From the NCBI GenBank assembly GCA_944324165.1, contig CALUVG010000005.1, positions 1-64,000 of the forward strand: DNA of 64,000 bases, written 5' to 3'. The translations under genes and the position numbers were made by a program. Below are positions 3,736-60,901 of the stretch, one piece after another (position 1 is the stretch's first letter; each line of letters opens with the position of its first letter). The notes beneath the pieces were generated by a model. The model was not told the origin of the DNA. It ran no database searches and saw only the letters and a list, made by a program, of their open reading frames with translations. Source of the stretch: Candidatus Gastranaerophilales bacterium (GTDB lineage: Bacteria > Cyanobacteriota > Vampirovibrionia > Gastranaerophilales > Gastranaerophilaceae).

Positions 3736-4899
3736 ATGAAACAGAAAACAAATTCAAAAAAGATTATTCATCACGGAGTGACAGAGCCAGCTTTATGTAA
3801 CTCCTTAGTGCCTCAGTGCCTTAGTAACTTAGTGCCTTTAAGAAAGCCCGCCTTTACCCTCGCGGAGGTCTTAATCACCCTCGCAATAATCGGCGTAGTT
3901 GCAGCGATAACAATCCCTTCACTAGTTAAGAACTACAACGAGAAGGCATGGAGCACCGCTCAGGATGTGTTTACGAAACGCCTAGAAGTCGCAACGCGTC
4001 AAATGAACACAGAAGAAAAACTTGCTGGCTACTCAAACACCATGGACTTTGTGAACGAATTGAAGAAATACATAAAAATAACAAGAGTATGCGACAATAA
4101 CAATATTACCAAGTGTTTTAACAAAGAAGTAATCTGGAACGAAGGCGAAGACCCTATAGATATGTCCACAATCAAAAACGCTGCATCACTCGGGCAAGAT
4201 GACTGGGATACTGATACTGTAGCAGTGCAATTTGCAAACGGTGTAAATGCGATAATTGCATATAACCCGAATACAACCCAAGACCCGTTTAATAACCAAT
4301 TTAGCGCAACAAGCAATTCAATGGCAATATTGTATGATGTAACCGGCAACAAGAACCCGAATAAATATGGCGCAAATTCAGATATATTTGGCATAAACGT
4401 AACCCAACTAGCCGGCGTATCGGGCTGCTTGTTGCCAGAAGAAGAATTAGGATTTTGCATAAGCCAGATACTAGGACCACAGAATGGCGGTTATGGACCA
4501 TTAACCTATGCAGAATGTACAGAGGCGAAGAATAATGGAGAAATAGATGTAGATGCATGTTATAACGGAAATGATTATTTTGCGGGTGCAGTAAAAGCCT
4601 GCGGAGGTAAGAAAGCAAACTTACCGAGTCAAGACCAGCTAACGGAGTTAGCAAAATATGTATACAACAATGATAGTATAAACTCCAGTGGGTTTACATA
4701 CGATTTGGCGTTAGACACAACAAAAGCAGCCCAATTCCTCTCAGCCTCACCAGATTCAAATAGGTTCTATGTTTGGTCTGGGCAGGAGTATAGTCAGTTC
4801 ACCGCGTACAGCCGCCGCTTTAACGATAGCTTCACGCACTCGGACTACAACTACGTCCGCTTCACCAACCAATTCTTCGCGGTGTGCGTGGACAATTAA
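3736..4899 (+). CDS. Prepilin-like protein A with hypervariable lectin-like C-terminus
   Basis: This 387-residue protein has a type IV prepilin signal: A39-F40TLAEV, Glu at +5 and a hydrophobic helix to about residue 60, so it should be cleaved by prepilin peptidase and assembled in or displayed by a pilus/pseudopilus. Residues 62-220 are almost identical to prepilins B (9608-10660) and C (41362-42450). The last ~44 residues (FYVWSGQE to AVCVDN) resemble the end of a C-type-lectin fold and are completely different from B. There, 30 of 36 codons end in G or C and 23 end in C, unlike the rest of the gene. The leader is unusually long (39 residues) because an intergenic repeat (3801-3840) lies in frame inside it. 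AGAAAGG precedes the ATG. Retroelement-driven diversification of the tail is inference. Confidence 0.85.
   Translation: MKQKTNSKKIIHHGVTEPALCNSLVPQCLSNLVPLRKPAFTLAEVLITLAIIGVVAAITIPSLVKNYNEKAWSTAQDVFTKRLEVATRQMNTEEKLAGYSNTMDFVNELKKYIKITRVCDNNNITKCFNKEVIWNEGEDPIDMSTIKNAASLGQDDWDTDTVAVQFANGVNAIIAYNPNTTQDPFNNQFSATSNSMAILYDVTGNKNPNKYGANSDIFGINVTQLAGVSGCLLPEEELGFCISQILGPQNGGYGPLTYAECTEAKNNGEIDVDACYNGNDYFAGAVKACGGKKANLPSQDQLTELAKYVYNNDSINSSGFTYDLALDTTKAAQFLSASPDSNRFYVWSGQEYSQFTAYSRRFNDSFTHSDYNYVRFTNQFFAVCVDN
4768..4899 (+). other. Candidate DGR-type variable region of prepilin A
   Basis: The final codons after GQE follow an NNC pattern (TAC, AGC, CGC, AAC, TTC, GAC and so on), as expected when AAC codons of a template are randomised at adenines. 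The conserved frame FYVWSGQE...AVC is shared with B, while the residues between are not. The region ends directly in the hairpin 4894-4920. No template copy was found in the window. Confidence 0.55.
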
Positions 4900-9586: not shown

Positions 9587-9613
9587 AATTAAGAGGACAA
9601 AGTCTTCTTAATC
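9587..9613 (-). other. Hairpin containing the stop codon of prepilin B
   Basis: This is the counterpart of 4894-4920: arms of 12 nt with a 3-nt loop and the TAA in the left arm. Two bases differ from the A copy, leaving one mismatch and one wobble pair. Confidence 0.7.
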
Positions 9614-10660
9614 GGATATACAGACCGCCAGCAGGCTAGGATTGTCGCGGTTGCCGAAGTCGTACTTGTTCCAGGACAAGCCGGTATTGTAAAAGAACAT
9701 GTTGTACGCAAACAGACCATCCTCCTGCCCTGACCAAACATAGAACGAGCCAGAAGACGCTGAGACTGAGAGAAATTGAAATGCTTTTTCTGTATCCATT
9801 GTTTTTTCACTTGAATTTATACTATCAGTATTATATACATATTTTGCAAGCTCTATTAACTGATCATGGTTTGGTATGTTACTAACTCCGCCACATGCTT
9901 TCACTGCACCAGCCCAGTAGTCACTTGTATAGCCTCCACAATATGCCTTATTATTTCCATAGCCTTCATCTGCTATCTGTTCGCATTCTGCTTTGCTTAG
10001 GGCACTATACCCTGTTCCTGGGGCTAATATCTGGCTTATACAAAATCCTAGCTCCTCTTCCGGTAATAAACATCCTGTTACTCCTGCAAGCTGTTTTACA
10101 TTTCCATTATGAGCAATATCCTTACCGTTTGTATTCGGATTTTTGTTGCCTGACACATCATACAATATTGCCATGCTTGCTGAAGTTGCACTAAACTGGT
10201 TATTGAATGGTTGTTGCTCGGTATTAGGATTGTAGGCAATAATTGCATTTACGCCATTTGCGAATTGCACGGCTACAGTATCCGTATCCCAATCGTCTTG
10301 TCCTAAGCTTGCAGCATTTTTGATTGTGGACATGTCAATCGGGTCTTCGCCCTCATTCCAGATTACCTCTTTATTAAAACATTTTGTTATGTTACTATTG
10401 TCACATACGCGAGTTATTTTTATGTATTTCTTCAATTCATTTACGAAGTCCATGGTATTTGAATAGCCTGCAAGTTTTTCTTCGGTATTCATCTGACGCG
10501 TTGCAACTTCGAGACGTTTTGTGAACACATCCTGTGCTGTTGACCATGCCTTTTCATTGTAATTCTGGATTAATGCTGGTAATGTCAGCACAGCAACCAC
10601 ACCAATGACTGCTAGTGTTATTAGGACCTCTGCGAGAGTAAAGGCTTTTAATTTATACAT
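9608..10660 (-). CDS. Prepilin-like protein B with hypervariable lectin-like C-terminus
   Basis: 350 residues with a short leader MYKLKA, then FTLAEVLITLAVIGVVAVLTLP, the type IV prepilin cleavage site and helix. The body matches prepilin A residue for residue over long stretches (for example KRLEVATRQMNTEEKLAGYS) despite many silent DNA differences, so the body is under purifying selection. After FYVWSGQE the last 37 residues differ from A in sequence and by one residue in length. There, 27 codons end in G or C and 18 end in C. A GGAGG ribosome site precedes the ATG. The gene is divergent from a small HTH-like gene and shares a regulatory spacer with it. Confidence 0.85.
   Translation of the reverse strand: MYKLKAFTLAEVLITLAVIGVVAVLTLPALIQNYNEKAWSTAQDVFTKRLEVATRQMNTEEKLAGYSNTMDFVNELKKYIKITRVCDNSNITKCFNKEVIWNEGEDPIDMSTIKNAASLGQDDWDTDTVAVQFANGVNAIIAYNPNTEQQPFNNQFSATSASMAILYDVSGNKNPNTNGKDIAHNGNVKQLAGVTGCLLPEEELGFCISQILAPGTGYSALSKAECEQIADEGYGNNKAYCGGYTSDYWAGAVKACGGVSNIPNHDQLIELAKYVYNTDSINSSEKTMDTEKAFQFLSVSASSGSFYVWSGQEDGLFAYNMFFYNTGLSWNKYDFGNRDNPSLLAVCISD
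9610..9742 (-). other. Candidate DGR-type variable region of prepilin B
   Basis: The codon series after GQE is rich in TAC, AAC, TTC, GAC, GGC and CGC, between the conserved FYVWSGQE and AVC anchors, and it ends in the stop-codon hairpin. It has one more codon than A, so a different template repeat, or indels, must be assumed if a DGR is responsible. Confidence 0.5.
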
Positions 10661-19475: not shown

Positions 19476-22430
19476 ATGATTGATAAAGTGGGATTAAGTT
19501 ATGGTATAAAATTTAAAAATAATCAACAGCACAATACTAATAGATCATATACAAGTACACCGCAACAACTTAAAAATAACAATCAAATAAACTTCGGATA
19601 TTATTATCCTATAAGCTTTACCGCAAATAAGAGAAGTAATGTTCAAAAAATGACTCCGCTTGAAGTGCTTGAATACTGTTACACAAATTCCGCTACCAAT
19701 CTTGTTAATGAAGCCACCAAAATTGCGAAAGATAATCAGAACAGTGAAGTTAATCATTTTCATATATGGAAGGTAGAACTAAATCAACTTGATAAATATA
19801 TTGATGATTTAAACTCCGGCAGCAAACATCATTCGGATCTTAACGGTGACAGCATACCATCTTTTTTAGAGTCAATAACAGCAAACAGTCTATTTAAAGA
19901 TGAACAAACCAGAAAAAAATTCCAAAAATTAATAAAAGAAGAAAATAAAACTCTTGATAATATAATATCAAAATTCCCGAAAGACGAAAAAGTTAATAAT
20001 CCTAAACTCTCTGATGAACTCGTACGTGATATCTGGAGTCCGAGAGAAGAAGAGAATGAAAGAGTGTACGACTTTAATATCTTTGGAGCAACTTTCTACT
20101 CCGCAAATGAAAATGTTAAAAATTTTATTGACAATTTTGTAAACAAAACATCCGATTTAACCATGGTTGTCCACACACCTGTTAAGGAACGTTCTCATAT
20201 AAAAGATTATGATGAAAAAGCTAACAATGTATGGAAAAATCTTTCACTCGGAACAAATATGTTTATAACTTTTGACCATAAAAAAGTTAACCCCAACATG
20301 TTTATTACAAGTTTATACACTACAGCTCCGGAAGATACCGATATTACAGAGTTCAACCTAAGTGTGAAAGAACGTTATGTATTTGAAAAAGTCAAAGAAC
20401 TTGCAAAAAATAAAAACAAAAAACACGTCATCATAATGTATCCGACAAATATGCTTGTAAATTCGACGAGTCAGGAAGATAAAGAACAACAAATCTACGC
20501 ATATTCAGATGAATTCCGTAATTTAATGGGCAACATACCGCAAAATATTAAATTTATAATGTTTGACGCTAAAGATAACTATTTTGTTAATATGCAAAAT
20601 CCGGTTATTCAAGCGATGTACGAGAATTTCGGTGAACTTTCCGTGCCTGTTTTGAGTACCGAGCAGTTTGTAAAAGCTTTCAAAGAAGAACCTAAACTGA
20701 TGAAAGATATTAAAAAACCGTTTAGCAAAAAGGCTATTGAAAAAACTGTAGAAAGTTCAGCCCAGCTTGACGGTATATTCCCCGATAAAACATTGAAGTT
20801 AATGAAAAAGATGACATCTTATTACATTGATAAAAAAGAGATAAATGAAAAAGATGTAATAAATTATGTGAAAGAAGCAAAAGAATTGTTCAAAAAGAAT
20901 GATGATGACAGTTCTATAAACGTAATCTTTGATACAGAAAAAAGAATAAAAGATATCATAGGAAAAGATTCGACCAAAAAAGAGGCAGCCGCTATCGTAA
21001 AACAAATAAAATCAAACCATATGGGTACAAAAGGTATGATTATTTACTCTCAAGACAGTATGGCAGGCAGCGGCAGACGCTTTATAGCCAAAACTATAGC
21101 AGGAGAGGCAAAAGTACCTTATATAGAAATGAATGCCATGGATTTTGGTACAAAAGAAGTCGATATCTTTGGCGGAAGTCTTTTATCTCCGGAAGGATCT
21201 ATTAAAAAAATGTTCTCGCTTGTAAATACTCAGGCAGAAAGTAATTCTAATAAGTCCGCTGTGTTATTTATTGAAAATTTCGAATACTTCTCTATTGGAG
21301 AACTTATCTCTGAATACCAGCAAAAAGCAATGGCGCAGCTTCTGCGAGAAATGGACAATGCAGAACGCAAAGGTCTAAATATTCTCGTAATAGGTTCAGT
21401 TTCTGACCCGAGACTTATTGGCGAAGCAACTATGAAATCCTTTAAGTTTGTTGACAGTATTGAAGTTTCCTCCCCTGCATATAACGATAAAGAAAGAGCA
21501 GACATCATACAGGCTGCTTTAAAAGAAAATAAAATAAAAATTGCCGGCAATACACCTGAAGAAAAACAGGAAATTATAAACTCTATTGCAAAAACAACAG
21601 AAGGCTTTCCTTTCATTTATGTGAAAAATGTAGTTAAAAAAGCACAGTCCGTTGCCCTTGAACGCGGACATAAAGAAGTTACCAAAGGCGATTTTACAGA
21701 AGCATATATGCAAATAACAACAGGACGCCCTTCTACAAAACACATTGAACCGCATGAAAAAGACATTGTCACATCACACGAGTGCGGACATGCCATTAAT
21801 GCAGAAATAATGAATGATATCGCTAAAAAATATGGCAAACCGTGGCATAAATCTTCAAAAGTAAACTTCATAACCCTGGATCCGCGCGGTTATTACGGCG
21901 GTGCAATGTATCCTTTAGAAGATAATAATGATGAAAAATCATTTGAAAAACTGTTTGCCGATATTGTATGTGATTACGGCGGACATTCCTGCGAAAAATA
22001 CTTCTATGGAATTGACGGATCTTATGGCATATCAAGTGATTTAAACATGGCAACAACTTCTGCCGATTGGATGGTTAAAATTATGGGGCAAGGCGCAAAA
22101 ACAGGTAAACAATCGCTGCTCAAATTTGATAAAAACTTATCCGAAAAAATGAAAGAACAAATTGAAGAAGACAGGCATGTAATTCTTGAAAATGCTCTTA
22201 CAGTATCCGACTTGATTACAGAAACTTATGCTGATTTCAATCGTGAATTTACTAAAAAATATGCACATCTTGTAGGCACAGGCGACTGCCTTGTTGATGG
22301 CGATGTTTTCAGAAATGAACTTGCAGACTGGAAAGCCCGTCAGCCTAAAGAAAAACAAGAAGAAATTAACCTTATGGAAAAAATGATTCTGGAAATTATT
22401 GCTAAAACAAAAAAAGGTGTAATATATTAA
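19476..22430 (+). CDS. FtsH-like M41 metalloprotease with degenerate AAA+ domain and Clp-N-like N-terminus
   Basis: 984 residues with no FtsH-type membrane helices. In order: a leader with PISFTANKR (~45-55), a helical part resembling the Clp N-domain (60-100), a degenerate Clp-like AAA part (~200-480), an FtsH-like AAA module (~510-700) and an M41 peptidase. The peptidase keeps the zinc site H768-E-C-G-H772 and the third ligand D855 in SSDLNMAT. The ATPase is damaged: the Walker A position reads MAGSGRRF (529-536) with no Lys-Thr, Walker B reads VLFIENF (596-602), and the arginine-finger RPGRFDR is replaced by KSFKFVD. It is therefore likely a soluble protease with a pseudo-ATPase. AAGGAG supports the start. 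Substrate unknown. Confidence 0.85.
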   Translation: MIDKVGLSYGIKFKNNQQHNTNRSYTSTPQQLKNNNQINFGYYYPISFTANKRSNVQKMTPLEVLEYCYTNSATNLVNEATKIAKDNQNSEVNHFHIWKVELNQLDKYIDDLNSGSKHHSDLNGDSIPSFLESITANSLFKDEQTRKKFQKLIKEENKTLDNIISKFPKDEKVNNPKLSDELVRDIWSPREEENERVYDFNIFGATFYSANENVKNFIDNFVNKTSDLTMVVHTPVKERSHIKDYDEKANNVWKNLSLGTNMFITFDHKKVNPNMFITSLYTTAPEDTDITEFNLSVKERYVFEKVKELAKNKNKKHVIIMYPTNMLVNSTSQEDKEQQIYAYSDEFRNLMGNIPQNIKFIMFDAKDNYFVNMQNPVIQAMYENFGELSVPVLSTEQFVKAFKEEPKLMKDIKKPFSKKAIEKTVESSAQLDGIFPDKTLKLMKKMTSYYIDKKEINEKDVINYVKEAKELFKKNDDDSSINVIFDTEKRIKDIIGKDSTKKEAAAIVKQIKSNHMGTKGMIIYSQDSMAGSGRRFIAKTIAGEAKVPYIEMNAMDFGTKEVDIFGGSLLSPEGSIKKMFSLVNTQAESNSNKSAVLFIENFEYFSIGELISEYQQKAMAQLLREMDNAERKGLNILVIGSVSDPRLIGEATMKSFKFVDSIEVSSPAYNDKERADIIQAALKENKIKIAGNTPEEKQEIINSIAKTTEGFPFIYVKNVVKKAQSVALERGHKEVTKGDFTEAYMQITTGRPSTKHIEPHEKDIVTSHECGHAINAEIMNDIAKKYGKPWHKSSKVNFITLDPRGYYGGAMYPLEDNNDEKSFEKLFADIVCDYGGHSCEKYFYGIDGSYGISSDLNMATTSADWMVKIMGQGAKTGKQSLLKFDKNLSEKMKEQIEEDRHVILENALTVSDLITETYADFNREFTKKYAHLVGTGDCLVDGDVFRNELADWKARQPKEKQEEINLMEKMILEIIAKTKKGVIY

Positions 22431-22492
22431 TATAAGCCTGATCTAAATATTCCGGTTTAATGTATCAATTTGTAACAATTCAGCAAAAACTT

Positions 22493-22520
22493 TAAAGTTC
22501 AGCCTGAAAAATTCCGTTTA
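22493..22520 (+). promoter_or_regulatory. Sigma-28-like promoter, copy 1
   Basis: TAAAGTTC, 12 bp ending in GAAAAAT, then TCCGTTTA. It shares sequence and spacing with three other promoters in the window. A dyad ATTAACTG/CAGTTAAT follows at 22521-22540, around the expected start of transcription. Confidence 0.5.
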
Positions 22521-22557: not shown

Positions 22558-22773
22558 ATGGCAGAAGAAAAAAAAGTTCTGGATATGGAAGATTTAATGA
22601 TTGATTACGGTGAAATGACCAGTTTCGATTTCAATTCATTAGATTATAAAGAAACAAGAGAGTTACAGAGAGCAATAGACAGCGAATATGCAAATCAGCC
22701 GCCAACATTTAAATATGGCAATTTTGATATTCTTGATATGCTGCACTCTTTTATTACACGAAAAGAATCTTAA
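22558..22773 (+). CDS. Small acidic hypothetical protein
   Basis: 71 residues, acidic (MAEEKKVLDMEDLMIDYGEM), with a predicted amphipathic helix around KETRELQRAIDSEY and a C-terminal ILDMLHSFITRK helix. No known family is recognised. The ribosome site AAGGAG (22543-22548) is well placed. It is the first gene of a two-gene unit behind a sigma-28-like promoter, which suggests a role tied to that regulon. This link is inference. Confidence 0.7.
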   Translation: MAEEKKVLDMEDLMIDYGEMTSFDFNSLDYKETRELQRAIDSEYANQPPTFKYGNFDILDMLHSFITRKES

Positions 22774-22791: not shown

Positions 22792-22998
22792 ATGAAAGAC
22801 GCTAAAGAATTATTCGATAAACTATGCATGTCTCCGGACTGGGGCGAATTGCCTCCGAAACCATTTGTAAGACAATATAAGGATTTGGAAACTCTCACCG
22901 CAGAACTTGAAGGCATAAAAAACAGAATTGACGAACTGAAAGCCAAAGAATGGAATATTCTTAAGCGTATGCAATTTAATAAAGAGGGGTTTCACTAA
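22792..22998 (+). CDS. Small coiled-coil hypothetical protein
   Basis: 68 residues: an N-terminal part with SPDWGELPPKPFVRQY, then a heptad-like helix LETLTAELEGIKNRIDELKAKEW that should form a coiled coil. It starts 19 bp after the preceding stop with its own GGAGAG site, so the two are co-transcribed and end at the terminator at 23025. The function is unknown; it could be an adaptor partner of the upstream protein. Confidence 0.7.
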   Translation: MKDAKELFDKLCMSPDWGELPPKPFVRQYKDLETLTAELEGIKNRIDELKAKEWNILKRMQFNKEGFH

Positions 22999-24658: not shown

Positions 24659-24911
24659 AAAACATCCCCCCAAAAATTATATTACTAACCCATTAATATT
24701 TTAACTATTAATATACTACTTTTAATCCTGCAAATATATGATTTAATTTATACATAAACTTTTCTAATATTAACGTTTCCAATATCTTATGACATTATCC
24801 TCACTATTTAATAAAAATTGTAACGAAAAGTTACAATAATATACATATGTGAAATTTTCCCTATTTCAAAGCGTTATTATATTTAAGAGAGTAAAATTAC
24901 AAGGATTTATT

Positions 24912-25826
24912 ATGAGTATAGCCATTGATGCAGATTTAGCTTATCTACAAACCCGATTGCACATAAGTGCAACTAAATTCCAGCAAGTATATGCCAACAT
25001 GTCCATCAAAGAAATACTTATGGCAGAAGCTGCTGAAGGCAATCAGGAAGCTATCGCACTGGCAAATGAACTTCTTAACAATGTAAATCTTATAATGGAA
25101 CTATTTAATCTTGCTGATCCAAGTAATAAATATGAAATTTTAAGCGAAATGACAGCACAGCAATTAAGAGTATTTCTCCCACGAATGGAAGAAAAAGACC
25201 TCGTTCAGGGATTATACTATTTTTCAGAAGACAAATTAATGACAATGCTTGAAGATGTCCCGCCTGAACAATTAGTTAAAGTTGTTTTCCAAATGTTTTC
25301 TAAAGAAGAGGTCGTAAGATTACTTCCTGATGAACAACTTGACAAATTTTTGACAAGTACTGACATTGATAAAAATAAAATTCTTAAACATATGCAGTCA
25401 ATTCCGGAAGAATATCTTATGCAAATATTAGAAAACATTACCGGAAAATCAGAAGATGGTGATCAAACCAGTTATGACCTGACAAAAAAAATTGGTGAAT
25501 TAAATCCGTTAGAATTTAAAGAAGCCTTAATGAGTTTTCAACCGACTCAAAAACAGCAGCTTGTATTGTCACTGGGTAAAGAACATTCTGAATGGTTCCA
25601 GCTTTTTGATCCGCATGCTTATACAAAAATGATTTATAACCACAAACAAAAGCCGGATATGGTTAAATCTATGGCTGTTCTTGAACCGGATCAAATTATC
25701 AAGATGAATGAAGAATTGCCTAATGATTTATTATCTATGGTCATTACACAGATGGATACCGAACCGTTTGCGGAAACACTTATGGATAAAATGCCTGAAC
25801 TTATTGCTAAATTTTTGATGAAATAA
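24912..25826 (+). CDS. Helical-repeat protein resembling MgtE-N/FliG-type domains
   Basis: 304 residues, no signal or membrane segment. The middle (about 75-170) consists of short helical hairpins such as DKLMTMLEDVPPEQLVKVVFQM and LLPDEQLDKFL, shown here in part, like the superhelical N-domain of MgtE or the FliG middle domain. The C-terminal part repeats similar units (LEPDQIIKMNEELPNDLLS). It is likely a scaffold or protein-binding module in the cytoplasm. The ATG at 24912 has AAGGA upstream; an in-frame ATG at 24849 lacks one. Its end overlaps the convergent pncC by 20 bp. Confidence 0.65.
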   Translation: MSIAIDADLAYLQTRLHISATKFQQVYANMSIKEILMAEAAEGNQEAIALANELLNNVNLIMELFNLADPSNKYEILSEMTAQQLRVFLPRMEEKDLVQGLYYFSEDKLMTMLEDVPPEQLVKVVFQMFSKEEVVRLLPDEQLDKFLTSTDIDKNKILKHMQSIPEEYLMQILENITGKSEDGDQTSYDLTKKIGELNPLEFKEALMSFQPTQKQQLVLSLGKEHSEWFQLFDPHAYTKMIYNHKQKPDMVKSMAVLEPDQIIKMNEELPNDLLSMVITQMDTEPFAETLMDKMPELIAKFLMK

Positions 25827-35526: not shown

Positions 35527-35742
35527 TGCCCAAATCCTTTAAAAATAGATTTATCCGGTATATATTTGATTTGAGTATGTAAACTTTTGTTAAAGTTTCA
35601 TTACAAAGTATATACGATATACGCAATTTTTCTATACGAAAATACTTTATATAAATATGGAAAACATTTTTTAGGATATACAAATTAAAGGAATGGCAAT
35701 GTAAATAATTGTAACAAAAACTGATAATTTATAAGAAATTAT

Positions 35743-35770
35743 TAAAGTTTACAATAGAAAATGTCGATTA
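35743..35770 (+). promoter_or_regulatory. Sigma-28-like promoter, copy 2
   Basis: TAAAGTTT, 12 bp ending in GAAAAT, then GTCGATTA. Of the four copies this is the closest to the bacterial FliA consensus (TAAAGTTT and GCCGATAA). Confidence 0.55.
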
Positions 35771-35801: not shown

Positions 35802-36236
35802 ATGGGTATCGAAGATTTAAAATTCAGATTAGCTAGCCAGTATGTACAATCAAGTAAAAATGCTAAAACTGAAGAAGGAAAAGGAAAAAAAGAGGTAAAG
35901 GCTGAAGAAGCACCAAAACAACAACAAACAACTGAGGTTGGAGATAAATTGCTGACTGAAGATCCAAAAATGGCAGTTATGCGTGATTTGGGCTTTATTA
36001 AAGCCGGAAGAGTTAATACATCACCGGAAGCTACAATGCAGAGAGCACAAACTTATTTTGAAACAGCTCCTGAGATGGCAGCTTTAAATGAAATGTTTGG
36101 CATTACAAATCAAAGAGGATATAATGTACGCGGTGTTGATAATGATAAACTTGACAGATATCTTGCAAAAGGTTTGTCTGAAGAATCCAGCACAGGTGTA
36201 CTAGATTTTATGGATAAATTAGTCGCTTTAGGTTAA
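35802..36236 (+). CDS. Hypothetical protein behind a sigma-28-like promoter
   Basis: 144 residues: a polar, Lys/Glu/Gln-rich disordered stretch (20-48) followed by a helical C-terminal domain (DPKMAVMRDLGFIKAG... to STGVLDFMDKLVALG). No family is recognised. AAAGGAG precedes the ATG, and a terminator follows 40 bp after the stop, so it is monocistronic. Its promoter links it to the operon at 22558 and the genes at 60082 and 60518; a shared function is inference. Confidence 0.7.
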   Translation: MGIEDLKFRLASQYVQSSKNAKTEEGKGKKEVKAEEAPKQQQTTEVGDKLLTEDPKMAVMRDLGFIKAGRVNTSPEATMQRAQTYFETAPEMAALNEMFGITNQRGYNVRGVDNDKLDRYLAKGLSEESSTGVLDFMDKLVALG

Positions 36237-41361: not shown

Positions 41362-42450
41362 TTACGACTGATGCGTACATATGGTCATAAGATTAATTTT
41401 TTGGCTGCGATGGGCACCCTCATAATAAAAACCCAAACAAGAATTGTTAATTATCCCAGAATATGTGGCCATACTGCTTGCCTCATCGTTTGTCCAGAAA
41501 TCAATTCTATCATTTGATGAAGATGCTTTTAGAAACAAAGTCGCTTTGTCCGGATCCCATTTAAACGGGTTATTGCAAACACTATCATTACCAACCCATT
41601 CGAACCTTGAACTCAAATCGTCCGTTCCCAAAAGATATATCGCAAGATCTCTTGCTTGATCGGAACTTATAAGATTGTTCACACCTCCACAGGTTTTTAT
41701 TGCTCCAGCCCAATAATCATTATCATCATAACAAGCTTCAATTCCTAAATCGTCTTTTTGCTTATTACAATCTTCTAATGACATAGGGCTATAGCTGCCA
41801 GGGGCTAACACCTGTGTTATACACATTTTATCTGCTAATTCAGGTATTAAGCATACTACAGCTTCTTCCTTTCCTAATTTTGTTACGTTGATATTACTTA
41901 TATCTTTTCCTATCGTATTCGGATTTTTGTTACCTGAGACATCATACAATATCGCCATACTGGAGGCTGTTGCCGCAAACTGATTATTATATGGTTCCTG
42001 AGTTGTTTCAGGATTGTATGCAATAACTGCATTTACTCCGTTTGCAAACTGCACAGCTACTGTATCTGTTCCCCAATCAAGCCCGAAACATTCCGCATCT
42101 TTTATTGTTGACATGTCAACCGGATCTTCATCTGCGTTTGCTATAACTTCATTTGTAAAACACTTTGTTATATTGTCATTATCGCAAACACGTGTAATTT
42201 TAATATACTTTTTGAGTTCATTCACAAAGTCCATGGTACTTGAGTAGCCCGCAAGCTTTTCTTCAGTGTTCATTTGTCTTGTTGCAACTTCAAGACGCTT
42301 TTCAAATACACTTTGGGCTGTGCTCCAGGCTCTGTCATTATAATGTTTTATTAATGGCGGAAGTGCAAGTACTGCCACTATACCGATAATTGCGAGAGTA
42401 ATTAAAACTTCTGCCAATGTAAATGCTTTCGTACTTATATTTTTTATCAT
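41362..42450 (-). CDS. Prepilin-like protein C, divergent C-terminus without NNC bias
   Basis: 362 residues. MIKNISTKA then FTLAEVLITLAIIGIVAVLALP is the prepilin signal and helix. Residues ~25-200 are close to prepilins A and B. The C-terminal ~150 residues diverge and end FWTNDEASSMA...LMTICTHQS, occupying the place of the lectin-like tail. Only 8 of its last ~42 codons end in C and no stop-codon hairpin follows, so it does not look like an active variable region. GGAGG precedes the ATG. It is divergent from a small HTH-like gene, as B is. Confidence 0.85.
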   Translation of the reverse strand: MIKNISTKAFTLAEVLITLAIIGIVAVLALPPLIKHYNDRAWSTAQSVFEKRLEVATRQMNTEEKLAGYSSTMDFVNELKKYIKITRVCDNDNITKCFTNEVIANADEDPVDMSTIKDAECFGLDWGTDTVAVQFANGVNAVIAYNPETTQEPYNNQFAATASSMAILYDVSGNKNPNTIGKDISNINVTKLGKEEAVVCLIPELADKMCITQVLAPGSYSPMSLEDCNKQKDDLGIEACYDDNDYWAGAIKTCGGVNNLISSDQARDLAIYLLGTDDLSSRFEWVGNDSVCNNPFKWDPDKATLFLKASSSNDRIDFWTNDEASSMATYSGIINNSCLGFYYEGAHRSQKINLMTICTHQS

Positions 42451-60020: not shown

Positions 60021-60048
60021 TAAAGTTTTATGTTGAAAATGTCGTAGT
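60021..60048 (+). promoter_or_regulatory. Sigma-28-like promoter, copy 3
   Basis: TAAAGTTT, 12 bp ending in GAAAAT, then GTCGTAGT, 33 bp before the ATG at 60082. Confidence 0.5.
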
Positions 60049-60081: not shown

Positions 60082-60444
60082 ATGTTTAACTCTGTAAATA
60101 ATCCTTTTAACAGACCAATAGAGTCTTCTACTTCGTCTGATAGCAACCGGCAGCATCAGCAAGAGAAAAGAGAAAGCGAAAAAAAATACCTTGAGCAGGA
60201 AGAAAATGACGAAGTCAGACTTGGTGGACTGCCAATACTTACAGAAGATGAAATTATATCTATGACAAGAGGTTATATAAATAATTTAAAGCAGGAACAT
60301 GAAGATAACGAGAAGATTGTAAAGAAACTTGAGAAATATCTGGAGAAGTTTGATGTAAAAAAGTTTATGAAGAAAAATCCAAATTTAACAAGCCCTGATT
60401 TTTATATGGTAATGTATAATGAAACAGAATCGCTGGTAAAATAA
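60082..60444 (+). CDS. Hypothetical protein, tandem paralogue 1
   Basis: 120 residues: a polar, Ser/Gln/Glu-rich disordered N-terminus (1-45), then a helical domain RGYINNLKQEHEDNEKIVKKLEKYLEKFDVKKF (quoted as extents 60-95) ending SPDFYMVMYNETESLVK. The domain pattern Y-x-NL...Y-x-x-x-FD-x-x-x-F...S...MY...VK is shared with the next gene. No family is recognised. It has its own sigma-28-like promoter and a GAGG ribosome site. Confidence 0.68.
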   Translation: MFNSVNNPFNRPIESSTSSDSNRQHQQEKRESEKKYLEQEENDEVRLGGLPILTEDEIISMTRGYINNLKQEHEDNEKIVKKLEKYLEKFDVKKFMKKNPNLTSPDFYMVMYNETESLVK

Positions 60445-60455
60445 CTTAATACAAT

Positions 60456-60483
60456 TAAAGTTTTTACTAAAAAATTCCGTAGT
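60456..60483 (+). promoter_or_regulatory. Sigma-28-like promoter, copy 4
   Basis: TAAAGTTT, 12 bp ending in AAAAAT, then TCCGTAGT, 34 bp before the ATG at 60518. Confidence 0.5.
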
Positions 60484-60517: not shown

Positions 60518-60901
60518 ATGGAAGTAAACAATGTATCAGGTGCCTACACATCAGCGGCAAAAGTCACAGAAACTGACGAAGATAAAGAAACCAAGAAAAC
60601 ACAAGAAGAAGAGGCAAAAGAAGCAAAAGTCAGTGAAAAAGAAGATAAAGACACGGTAGAGCTTACGGATAGCGATTATGATGAAGACGGGGTAGAAGAA
60701 AAAGCTAATAATTATGTTGCAAATTTATTGGCTAATCAGAGTCTGACAGAAGAATCACGTGCCTTAATTCAGCAATATATGAATACTTTTGATGGCGCAC
60801 GGTTTATAAAGATGTATGGACCATTTTCCTCAACAGCAGAGATTTCGGCTGCAATGTATGCGGTAACATCGCATATGGTAAAATATCAACAGGATGAATA
60901 G
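60518..60901 (+). CDS. Hypothetical protein, tandem paralogue 2
   Basis: 127 residues: a very acidic/lysine-rich disordered first half (15-65), then a domain NNYVANLLANQSLTEESRAL, IQQYMNTFDGARFIKMYG and TAEISAAMYAVTSHMVKY, matching the domain of the previous gene position by position. AAAGGA precedes the ATG and a strong terminator follows. Separate promoters for the two paralogues suggest repeated recruitment to one regulon. Function unknown. Confidence 0.68.
   Translation: MEVNNVSGAYTSAAKVTETDEDKETKKTQEEEAKEAKVSEKEDKDTVELTDSDYDEDGVEEKANNYVANLLANQSLTEESRALIQQYMNTFDGARFIKMYGPFSSTAEISAAMYAVTSHMVKYQQDE

What the first reader, a model, noticed from the sequence alone, without database searches (positions are those of the whole stretch)
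35743..35770. Four sigma-28/SigF-like promoters before small unknown genes
TAAAGTTY-N12-(G/T)(C/T)CG(A/T) occurs at 22493, 35743, 60021 and 60456, each 33-40 bp before a small hypothetical gene, with an extra shared A-rich block ending AAAAT directly before the -10. FliA consensus is TAAAGTTT with GCCGATAA. In cyanobacteria the related SigF governs type IV pili, so these proteins may belong to a pilus or motility regulon. No flagellar gene is in the window.
Basis: partly seen in the sequence, partly recalled or inferred. Interest (0 to 1): 0.75.

Follow-up and report, generated by a model that had tools for sequence, protein, structure and literature searches.

The report
Sigma-28 switch for a secretion regulon
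The four repeated DNA signals are real sigma-28 (flagellar-type) promoters, but in this gut relative of cyanobacteria, which has no flagellin gene, they drive a set of uncharacterised and probably exported proteins, and two of the four also carry what looks like a binding site for a response regulator known from light control in cyanobacteria.

Summary
Confirmed and extended. The window belongs to a Gastranaerophilales (Melainabacteria) genome. All four sites exist (0.03 expected). The genome has 15 sites against 6 for the reversed pattern, and 13 of the 15 lie before ORFs. It encodes a true FliA sigma factor but no flagellin.

The strongest evidence comes from an uncharacterised, order-wide protein family ("SASQAR": MG(L/M)(S/A)ASQAR start, conserved C-terminal coil, variable middle). 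Of 102 distinct genes, 85 carry TAAAG-N15/16-YCGW upstream; shuffles give about 0.5.

Every sampled genome, flagellated or not, has a second flagellum-like export apparatus (second FliP in 39/39, second FlhA in 35/39). I infer the regulon is the late-gene set of this non-flagellar secretion system.

New element: many of these promoters carry an HLR1-like direct repeat, the published RpaB site, locked 34-36 or 44-46 bp upstream of the -35. With at most 1 mismatch it occurs in 33/84 SASQAR promoters (shuffled 0.1); site 35743 has a perfect copy and 22493 has one mismatch. The genome encodes RpaB (NCBIfam equivalog). RpaB's role in these non-photosynthetic bacteria is an open question.

The pilus/SigF reading is not supported. 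Export, FliA dependence and RpaB binding remain inferences.

The parts
22459..22476 (+). HLR1/RpaB-like direct repeat AATGTATCAATTTGTAAC, 34 bp upstream of the -35
   Evidence: 1 mismatch to the reverse complement of the published HLR1 consensus; conserved in the G001 orthologue (AATGTATCATTTTGTAAC)
22493..22517 (+). sigma-28-type promoter TAAAGTTC-N12-TCCGT
   Evidence: PWM 21.5; conserved 40 bp before the 90%-identical G001 orthologue
22558..22773 (+). 71-aa acidic protein of unknown family, first gene behind the promoter
   Evidence: no Pfam or NCBIfam match
22792..22998 (+). 68-aa coiled-coil-like protein, probable second gene of the operon
   Evidence: 18 bp gap, same strand; no significant family
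35698..35715 (+). perfect HLR1/RpaB-like direct repeat AATGTAAATAATTGTAAC, 45 bp upstream of the -35
   Evidence: 0 mismatches to HLR1 (reverse complement)
35743..35767 (+). sigma-28-type promoter TAAAGTTT-N12-GTCGA
   Evidence: PWM 21.2
35802..36236 (+). 144-aa protein of unknown family
   Evidence: no Pfam or NCBIfam match
60021..60045 (+). sigma-28-type promoter TAAAGTTT-N12-GTCGT (no HLR1 box)
   Evidence: PWM 18.9; motif conserved before orthologues in G002, G003, G004, and in relaxed form in G005, G015, G018
60082..60444 (+). 120-aa protein, distant paralogue of the next gene
   Evidence: 26% identity to 60518 product; orthologues in relatives
60456..60480 (+). sigma-28-type promoter TAAAGTTT-N12-TCCGT (no HLR1 box)
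   Evidence: PWM 21.9; conserved in G002-G004, G015, and with a one-base variant in G005 and G018
60518..60901 (+). 127-aa protein: about 50 disordered N-terminal residues and a 4-helix C-terminal domain
   Evidence: AlphaFold2 from a 2-sequence alignment, pLDDT below 50 for residues 1-46 and about 90 in the domain; no fold match

Best explanation
The four sites are core promoters for the sigma-28 factor FliA. In this flagellin-less Gastranaerophilales bacterium FliA no longer serves a filament. It switches on the late genes of a second, flagellum-derived secretion apparatus that the whole order keeps. Those genes are the SASQAR family (candidate exported, filament- or tip-like proteins), small acidic or helical proteins such as the four in the window (candidate substrates or chaperones), a peptidoglycan hydrolase, a c-di-GMP-phosphodiesterase-like protein and effector-like proteins. 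At a large subset of these promoters, including 22493 and 35743, an OmpR-family response regulator, most likely RpaB, binds an HLR1-type direct repeat at a fixed helical phase upstream of the -35 and helps FliA-RNA polymerase. Apparatus genes have neither element, so the flagellar logic of early structural genes and late sigma-28 genes appears to be kept. Shown here: motif, spacing lock, HLR1-like box and its phase, presence of FliA, RpaB and the apparatus genes. Inferred: that FliA reads the motif, that RpaB binds the box, and that the products are exported.
For: Motif real and genome-wide. 85 of 102 distinct SASQAR genes carry TAAAG-N15/16-YCGW (71 N16, 14 N15), while spacers N11-N14 and N17-N20 are at background. 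FliA passes its family cut-off in 38 of 39 genomes, and its region 2-3 and 4 positions match E. coli FliA. Five flagellins in flagellated relatives have the N15 form. No flagellin in this genome, and in 18 of the 39 genomes in all, yet a second FliP in 39/39, a second FlhA in 35/39, SASQAR in 39/39, and FlgG' in 36/39. FliE-FliF-FliH-FlhA cluster and FlhB in this genome. HLR1-like box: at most 1 mismatch in 33/84 SASQAR promoters (shuffled 0.1) at fixed distances, and in 9/47 strict sites outside the main SASQAR set (shuffled 0.15). RpaB present: NF045944 equivalog 361 vs cut-off 330 bits. Flagellin promoters and apparatus operons lack the box. Activator-dependent sigma-28 promoters have precedent in E. 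coli aer and trg (PMC2859248).
Against: No transcript starts, binding or secretion data exist here. The rod genes flgFGBC' were not found in this genome's 55-contig assembly. The spacer is one base longer than the E. coli consensus. Two short FliA-like proteins (one beside flhB) are further sigma candidates. Many SASQAR promoters are paralogous, so they are not independent. 60021 and 60456 lack the HLR1 box. RpaA or another OmpR-type regulator could bind similar repeats. SASQAR proteins show no sequence homology to flagellin and no diagnostic fold match. In an unbiased 400-kb sample the PWM excess over the reversed control is small (6 vs 3 at score 16).
Confidence: 0.68

Rival explanations
1. 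Another sigma factor reads these promoters: the SigF-like group-3 factor at C1:118957 or the short FliA-like factor encoded beside flhB.
For: SigF-like factor (190 bits to cyanobacterial SigF, below cut-off); the flhB-linked factor is found in most relatives; the N16 spacing differs from the N15 of the flagellin promoters.
Against: Both lack the FliA positions equivalent to E. coli R74 and D81; the flhB-linked protein has no recognisable region 2; the -35 and -10 sequences are FliA-like and the full-length FliA is present in 38/39 genomes.
Confidence: 0.17
2. The sites belong to a type IV pilus or motility regulon.
Against: None of the regulon genes recovered in this genome and four congeners is a pilin or pilus-machine gene; pseudopilin-like genes in the window do not carry the motif.
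Confidence: 0.04
3. The sites are remnants of a flagellar regulon in a lineage that recently lost flagella, now without function.
For: Related genomes have complete flagella; published work called the sets of most Gastranaerophilales an incomplete flagellum (PMC4040986).
Against: Flagellated relatives carry both apparatuses side by side, so the set is not a decayed flagellum; motifs are conserved before orthologues across genera; SASQAR genes are in every genome, often in many copies.
Confidence: 0.06
4. The HLR1-like repeat is an AT-rich UP element or a site for another OmpR-family regulator (RpaA or others) rather than RpaB.
For: UP elements are AT-rich and lie upstream of the -35; OmpR-family sites are typically direct repeats of 10-11 bp (established knowledge, not tested here).
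Against: Specific TGTAAC half-sites, orientation bias (33 vs 5 in reverse at 1 mismatch) and fixed positions speak against a simple UP element; RpaB is encoded in this genome. RpaA or another regulator is not excluded.
Confidence: 0.3

Closest known systems
FliA/sigma-28 class III flagellar promoters (E. coli, TAAAGTTT-N11-GCCGATAA)
   Same: Same -35 and -10 sequences; a FliA-family factor is encoded; late-gene logic
   Different: Dominant spacer is one base longer; downstream genes are not flagellar; genome has no flagellin
CRP-activated sigma-28 promoters aer and trg of E. coli (PMC2859248)
   Same: Sigma-28 core plus an activator site at a fixed position upstream of the -35
   Different: Box is an OmpR-type direct repeat, not a CRP palindrome, and lies further upstream
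HLR1 element and RpaB of cyanobacteria (PMC11633204)
   Same: (G/T)TTACA(T/A)(T/A)NN(G/T)TTACA(T/A)(T/A) direct repeat; RpaB equivalog encoded
   Different: Coupled to sigma-28 promoters of a secretion-like regulon in a non-photosynthetic gut bacterium
Flagellar basal-body-type secretion without filament (reported for Melainabacteria as an incomplete flagellum, PMC3787301 and PMC4040986)
   Same: FliE, FliF, FliH, FlhA, FlhB, FliP and FlgBCFG-like proteins
   Different: Coexists with a separate complete flagellum in relatives; universal in the order; linked here to a FliA regulon of SASQAR proteins

Membership tests
sigma-28 (FliA) promoter | TAAAG(TTT) -35 element and (G)CCGA(TAA) -10 element | tested here: met
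sigma-28 (FliA) promoter | spacer of N11 between the octamers, or close to it | tested here: inconclusive
   window sites have one base more; across SASQAR genes 71 have the longer and 14 the canonical spacer
sigma-28 (FliA) promoter | cognate FliA encoded in the genome | tested here: met
   C9:36933-37595, 243 bits vs cut-off 189.6
sigma-28 (FliA) promoter | transcript starts at the expected distance, dependent on FliA | not testable with these tools
   no RNA data
Cyanobacterial SigF / type IV pilus regulon | downstream genes encode pilus components | tested here: not met
Flagellum | flagellin present | tested here: not met
   no PF00669 match in this genome
Flagellum-type export apparatus | FlhA, FlhB, FliP, FliE, FliF, FliH | tested here: met
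Flagellum-type export apparatus | rod proteins FlgB, FlgC, FlgF, FlgG | tested here: inconclusive
   present in most relatives, not found in this assembly
Injectisome (non-flagellar T3SS) | SctV-type export gate | tested here: not met
   FlhA' scores 707 bits to FlhA and 598 to SctV, below both cut-offs
Injectisome (non-flagellar T3SS) | secretin, needle and translocon proteins | not tested
   no searches made
RpaB / HLR1 | RpaB encoded | tested here: met
   C3:31136-31885, NF045944 361 vs 330 bits
RpaB / HLR1 | HLR1 consensus upstream of the window promoters | tested here: inconclusive
   perfect at 35743, one mismatch at 22493, absent at 60021 and 60456
RpaB / HLR1 | binding of RpaB to the box | not testable with these tools
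   needs protein-DNA experiment
Flagellin-like filament protein (SASQAR family) | sequence homology to flagellin | tested here: not met
   hhalign probability 0.3%; no Pfam or PDB profile match
Flagellin-like filament protein (SASQAR family) | terminal helices forming a coiled-coil core with variable middle | tested here: inconclusive
   AlphaFold2 helices 3-49 and 312-372, pLDDT 81; flagellins at Z about 9 but unrelated coiled coils score higher

The most novel reading that the evidence does not exclude
An order of gut relatives of cyanobacteria keeps a dedicated, non-motile, flagellum-derived secretion machine. Its exported proteins (the SASQAR family and effector-like proteins) are switched on by FliA together with RpaB. 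RpaB's original role before photosynthesis, or its later re-use, would then be in secretion or surface control rather than light response.
Probability: 0.35. Interest if true: 0.9.

Novelty: new variant of a known kind. Interest (0 to 1): 0.78.

Why it matters
Melainabacteria live in animal guts and are non-photosynthetic relatives of cyanobacteria. Di Rienzi et al. noted that they keep RpaA, RpaB and NblS and that these 'may have another function' (PMC3787301). The HLR1-like boxes give a concrete, testable set of targets for RpaB. The data also suggest that what was read as an incomplete flagellum in many of these genomes is a separate, universal secretion apparatus with its own sigma-28 regulon, including candidate host- or neighbour-directed proteins.

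Tried and rejected
SigF/type IV pilus regulon: no pilus genes behind the motif. SASQAR as flagellin homologues: hhalign 0.3%, no PDB profile hit; Foldseek gave nothing below E 0.001, and VIA-align matches to flagellins are no better than to unrelated coiled coils. Fold of the 60518 product: no match. Flagellins in all flagellated relatives being FliA-driven: only five of about 15 scored show the motif within 200 bp. The PWM scan on loci chosen because they hold the motif is biased (18 vs 2 at score 16); in an unbiased 400-kb sample the excess is small (6 vs 3), so the regulon is sparse and weak PWM hits should not be trusted. Literature searches found no report of a T3SS or of FliA in Gastranaerophilales or Melainabacteria in the library held; that library lacks most subscription journals.

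Full report
Observation. The pattern TAAAGTTY-N12-KYCGW occurs exactly four times in the window, at 22493, 35743, 60021 and 60456, all on the + strand; shuffles give 0.03. The genome in which the window lies (2.05 Mb, 55 contigs) has 15 matches against 6 for the reversed pattern. Thirteen of the 15 stand shortly before an ORF start. Relatives named by the genome collection are Candidatus Gastranaerophilales, Melainabacteria and Scatousia.

Conservation. In four congeners, 40 strict sites were read out: 35 precede an ORF of 55 aa or more, and 23 of these ORFs are orthologues of genes behind the motif in this genome, including the 71-aa window gene (90% identical, same 40-bp distance). The neighbouring pair 60082/60518 keeps both motifs in G002, G003 and G004, and in relaxed form in G005, G015 and G018.

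The strongest test. Three of the first 15 sites lie before proteins that begin MG(L/M)AASQAR and share a conserved C-terminal coil. This family, here called SASQAR, is found in all 39 genomes searched and has no Pfam, NCBIfam or PDB counterpart. Among 102 distinct SASQAR genes, 71 have TAAAG-N16-YCGW and 14 have TAAAG-N15-YCGW within 160 bp upstream, against about 0.2-0.3 in shuffles; spacers N11-N14 and N17-N20 are at background. The consensus is TAAAGTTTT, an A-rich stretch, then gCCG(A/T), usually 25-60 bp before the start codon. E. coli sigma-28 has TAAAGTTT-N11-GCCGATAA (PMC2859248), so the dominant form here is one base longer.

Which sigma factor. The genome encodes eight proteins with sigma-70 region 2. 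One is a FliA/WhiG-family factor above its curated cut-off and closest in the PDB to WhiG and FliA. In an alignment with E. coli FliA it keeps the positions equivalent to R74, D81, R84 and R91, while the SigF-like factor and a short FliA-like factor encoded beside flhB do not. The E. coli sequence and the role of these residues were supplied from my own knowledge. Five flagellins of flagellated relatives carry the N15 form of the motif, a useful positive control. Two short FliA-like paralogues remain as candidates.

What the regulon is. This genome and 17 other sampled genomes have no flagellin. Yet every genome has a FliP of a second type (39/39) and 35 of 39 have a second FlhA; most flagellated relatives have both types. 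In this genome FliE, FliF, FliH and FlhA stand in one cluster and FlhB elsewhere. In G017 a single cluster holds FlgF-, FlgG-, FlgB- and FlgC-like proteins, a transglycosylase, FliE, FliF, FliH, FlhA and FliI. FlgG' is in 36 of 39 genomes but not in this assembly. The apparatus operons have no sigma-28 motif. I infer that the motif marks late, probably exported products of this second apparatus. Other genes behind it are a LysM-amidase-lysozyme protein, a GAF-HD protein and a 1842-aa protein with EF-hand, FHA and a C-terminal ADP-ribosyltransferase-like domain. The SASQAR model has long terminal helices (3-49 and 312-372, pLDDT 81), but neither sequence nor fold search shows kinship with flagellin.

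A second promoter element. TGTAACA lies 22-24 or 32-36 bp upstream of the -35 in 35 of 84 SASQAR promoters (0.62 in shuffles), often as a direct repeat of 10-11 bp. On the other strand this is the published HLR1 consensus of the response regulator RpaB (PMC11633204). With that outside consensus, at most one mismatch, 33 of 84 promoters match (0.1 in shuffles; 5 in the opposite orientation); best matches of up to three mismatches start nearly always 34-36 or 44-46 bp upstream of the -35. Among 47 strict sites outside the main SASQAR set (three of them SASQAR genes with a mis-called start), 9 match with at most one mismatch and 18 with two (0.15 and 0.9 in shuffles). In the window, 35743 has a perfect copy at 45 bp and 22493 a one-mismatch copy at 34 bp, while 60021 and 60456 have none. 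Flagellin promoters do not have it (best 2 mismatches). The genome encodes RpaB (361 bits vs 330 cut-off). Melainabacteria were reported to keep RpaA, RpaB and NblS with unknown function (PMC3787301). Activator-dependent sigma-28 promoters are known from E. coli.

Limits. The motif pattern came from the window itself, and SASQAR promoters are related by descent. The spacing lock, the outside HLR1 consensus and the non-SASQAR sites reduce but do not remove that concern. Export, FliA dependence and RpaB binding are inferred. The literature search covered open-access papers only.

Noticed in passing
G000:C21:18045-19064 (L049:9016-10491, - strand): A 491-aa protein that holds only the C-terminal cytoplasmic half of FlhA (165 bits); a similar half-FlhA is found in most relatives. 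Function unknown.
   Followed up: partly
G000:C1:113382-114035 (L037:2380-3036, - strand): Short FliA-like sigma protein with region 4 but no recognisable region 2, next to flhB; a second paralogue at C4:75786. Both are widespread in the order.
   Followed up: partly
G000:C2, L040:2979-8507 (- strand): 1842-aa protein behind a sigma-28-type promoter with EF-hand, FHA and a C-terminal ADP-ribosyltransferase-like domain (PF03496, E 1e-14); looks like a secreted effector.
   Followed up: partly
window 3736-4899, 9608-10660, 41362-42450: Three pseudopilin-like proteins sharing a nearly identical stretch (EKAWSTAQ...RQMNTEEKLAGYS...) after the pilin signal; a further copy at L047:11856-13016.
   Followed up: no
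window 24849-25826: MgtE_N-domain protein (E 1.7e-9, three stretches), possibly FliG-like; the FliG position of the second apparatus (L047:7428-8447) holds another weak MgtE_N protein.
   Followed up: partly
window 19476-22430: 984-aa protein with AAA-type ATPase and zinc-protease-like (HECGH) motifs directly upstream of the 22493 promoter; FtsH-like but with an unusual N-terminus.
   Followed up: no
   Followed up: partly
L043:10772, L300:3632, L313:10453: Perfect HLR1-like repeats without a sigma-28 motif, for example before a fabD-like gene; possible further RpaB targets.
   Followed up: no
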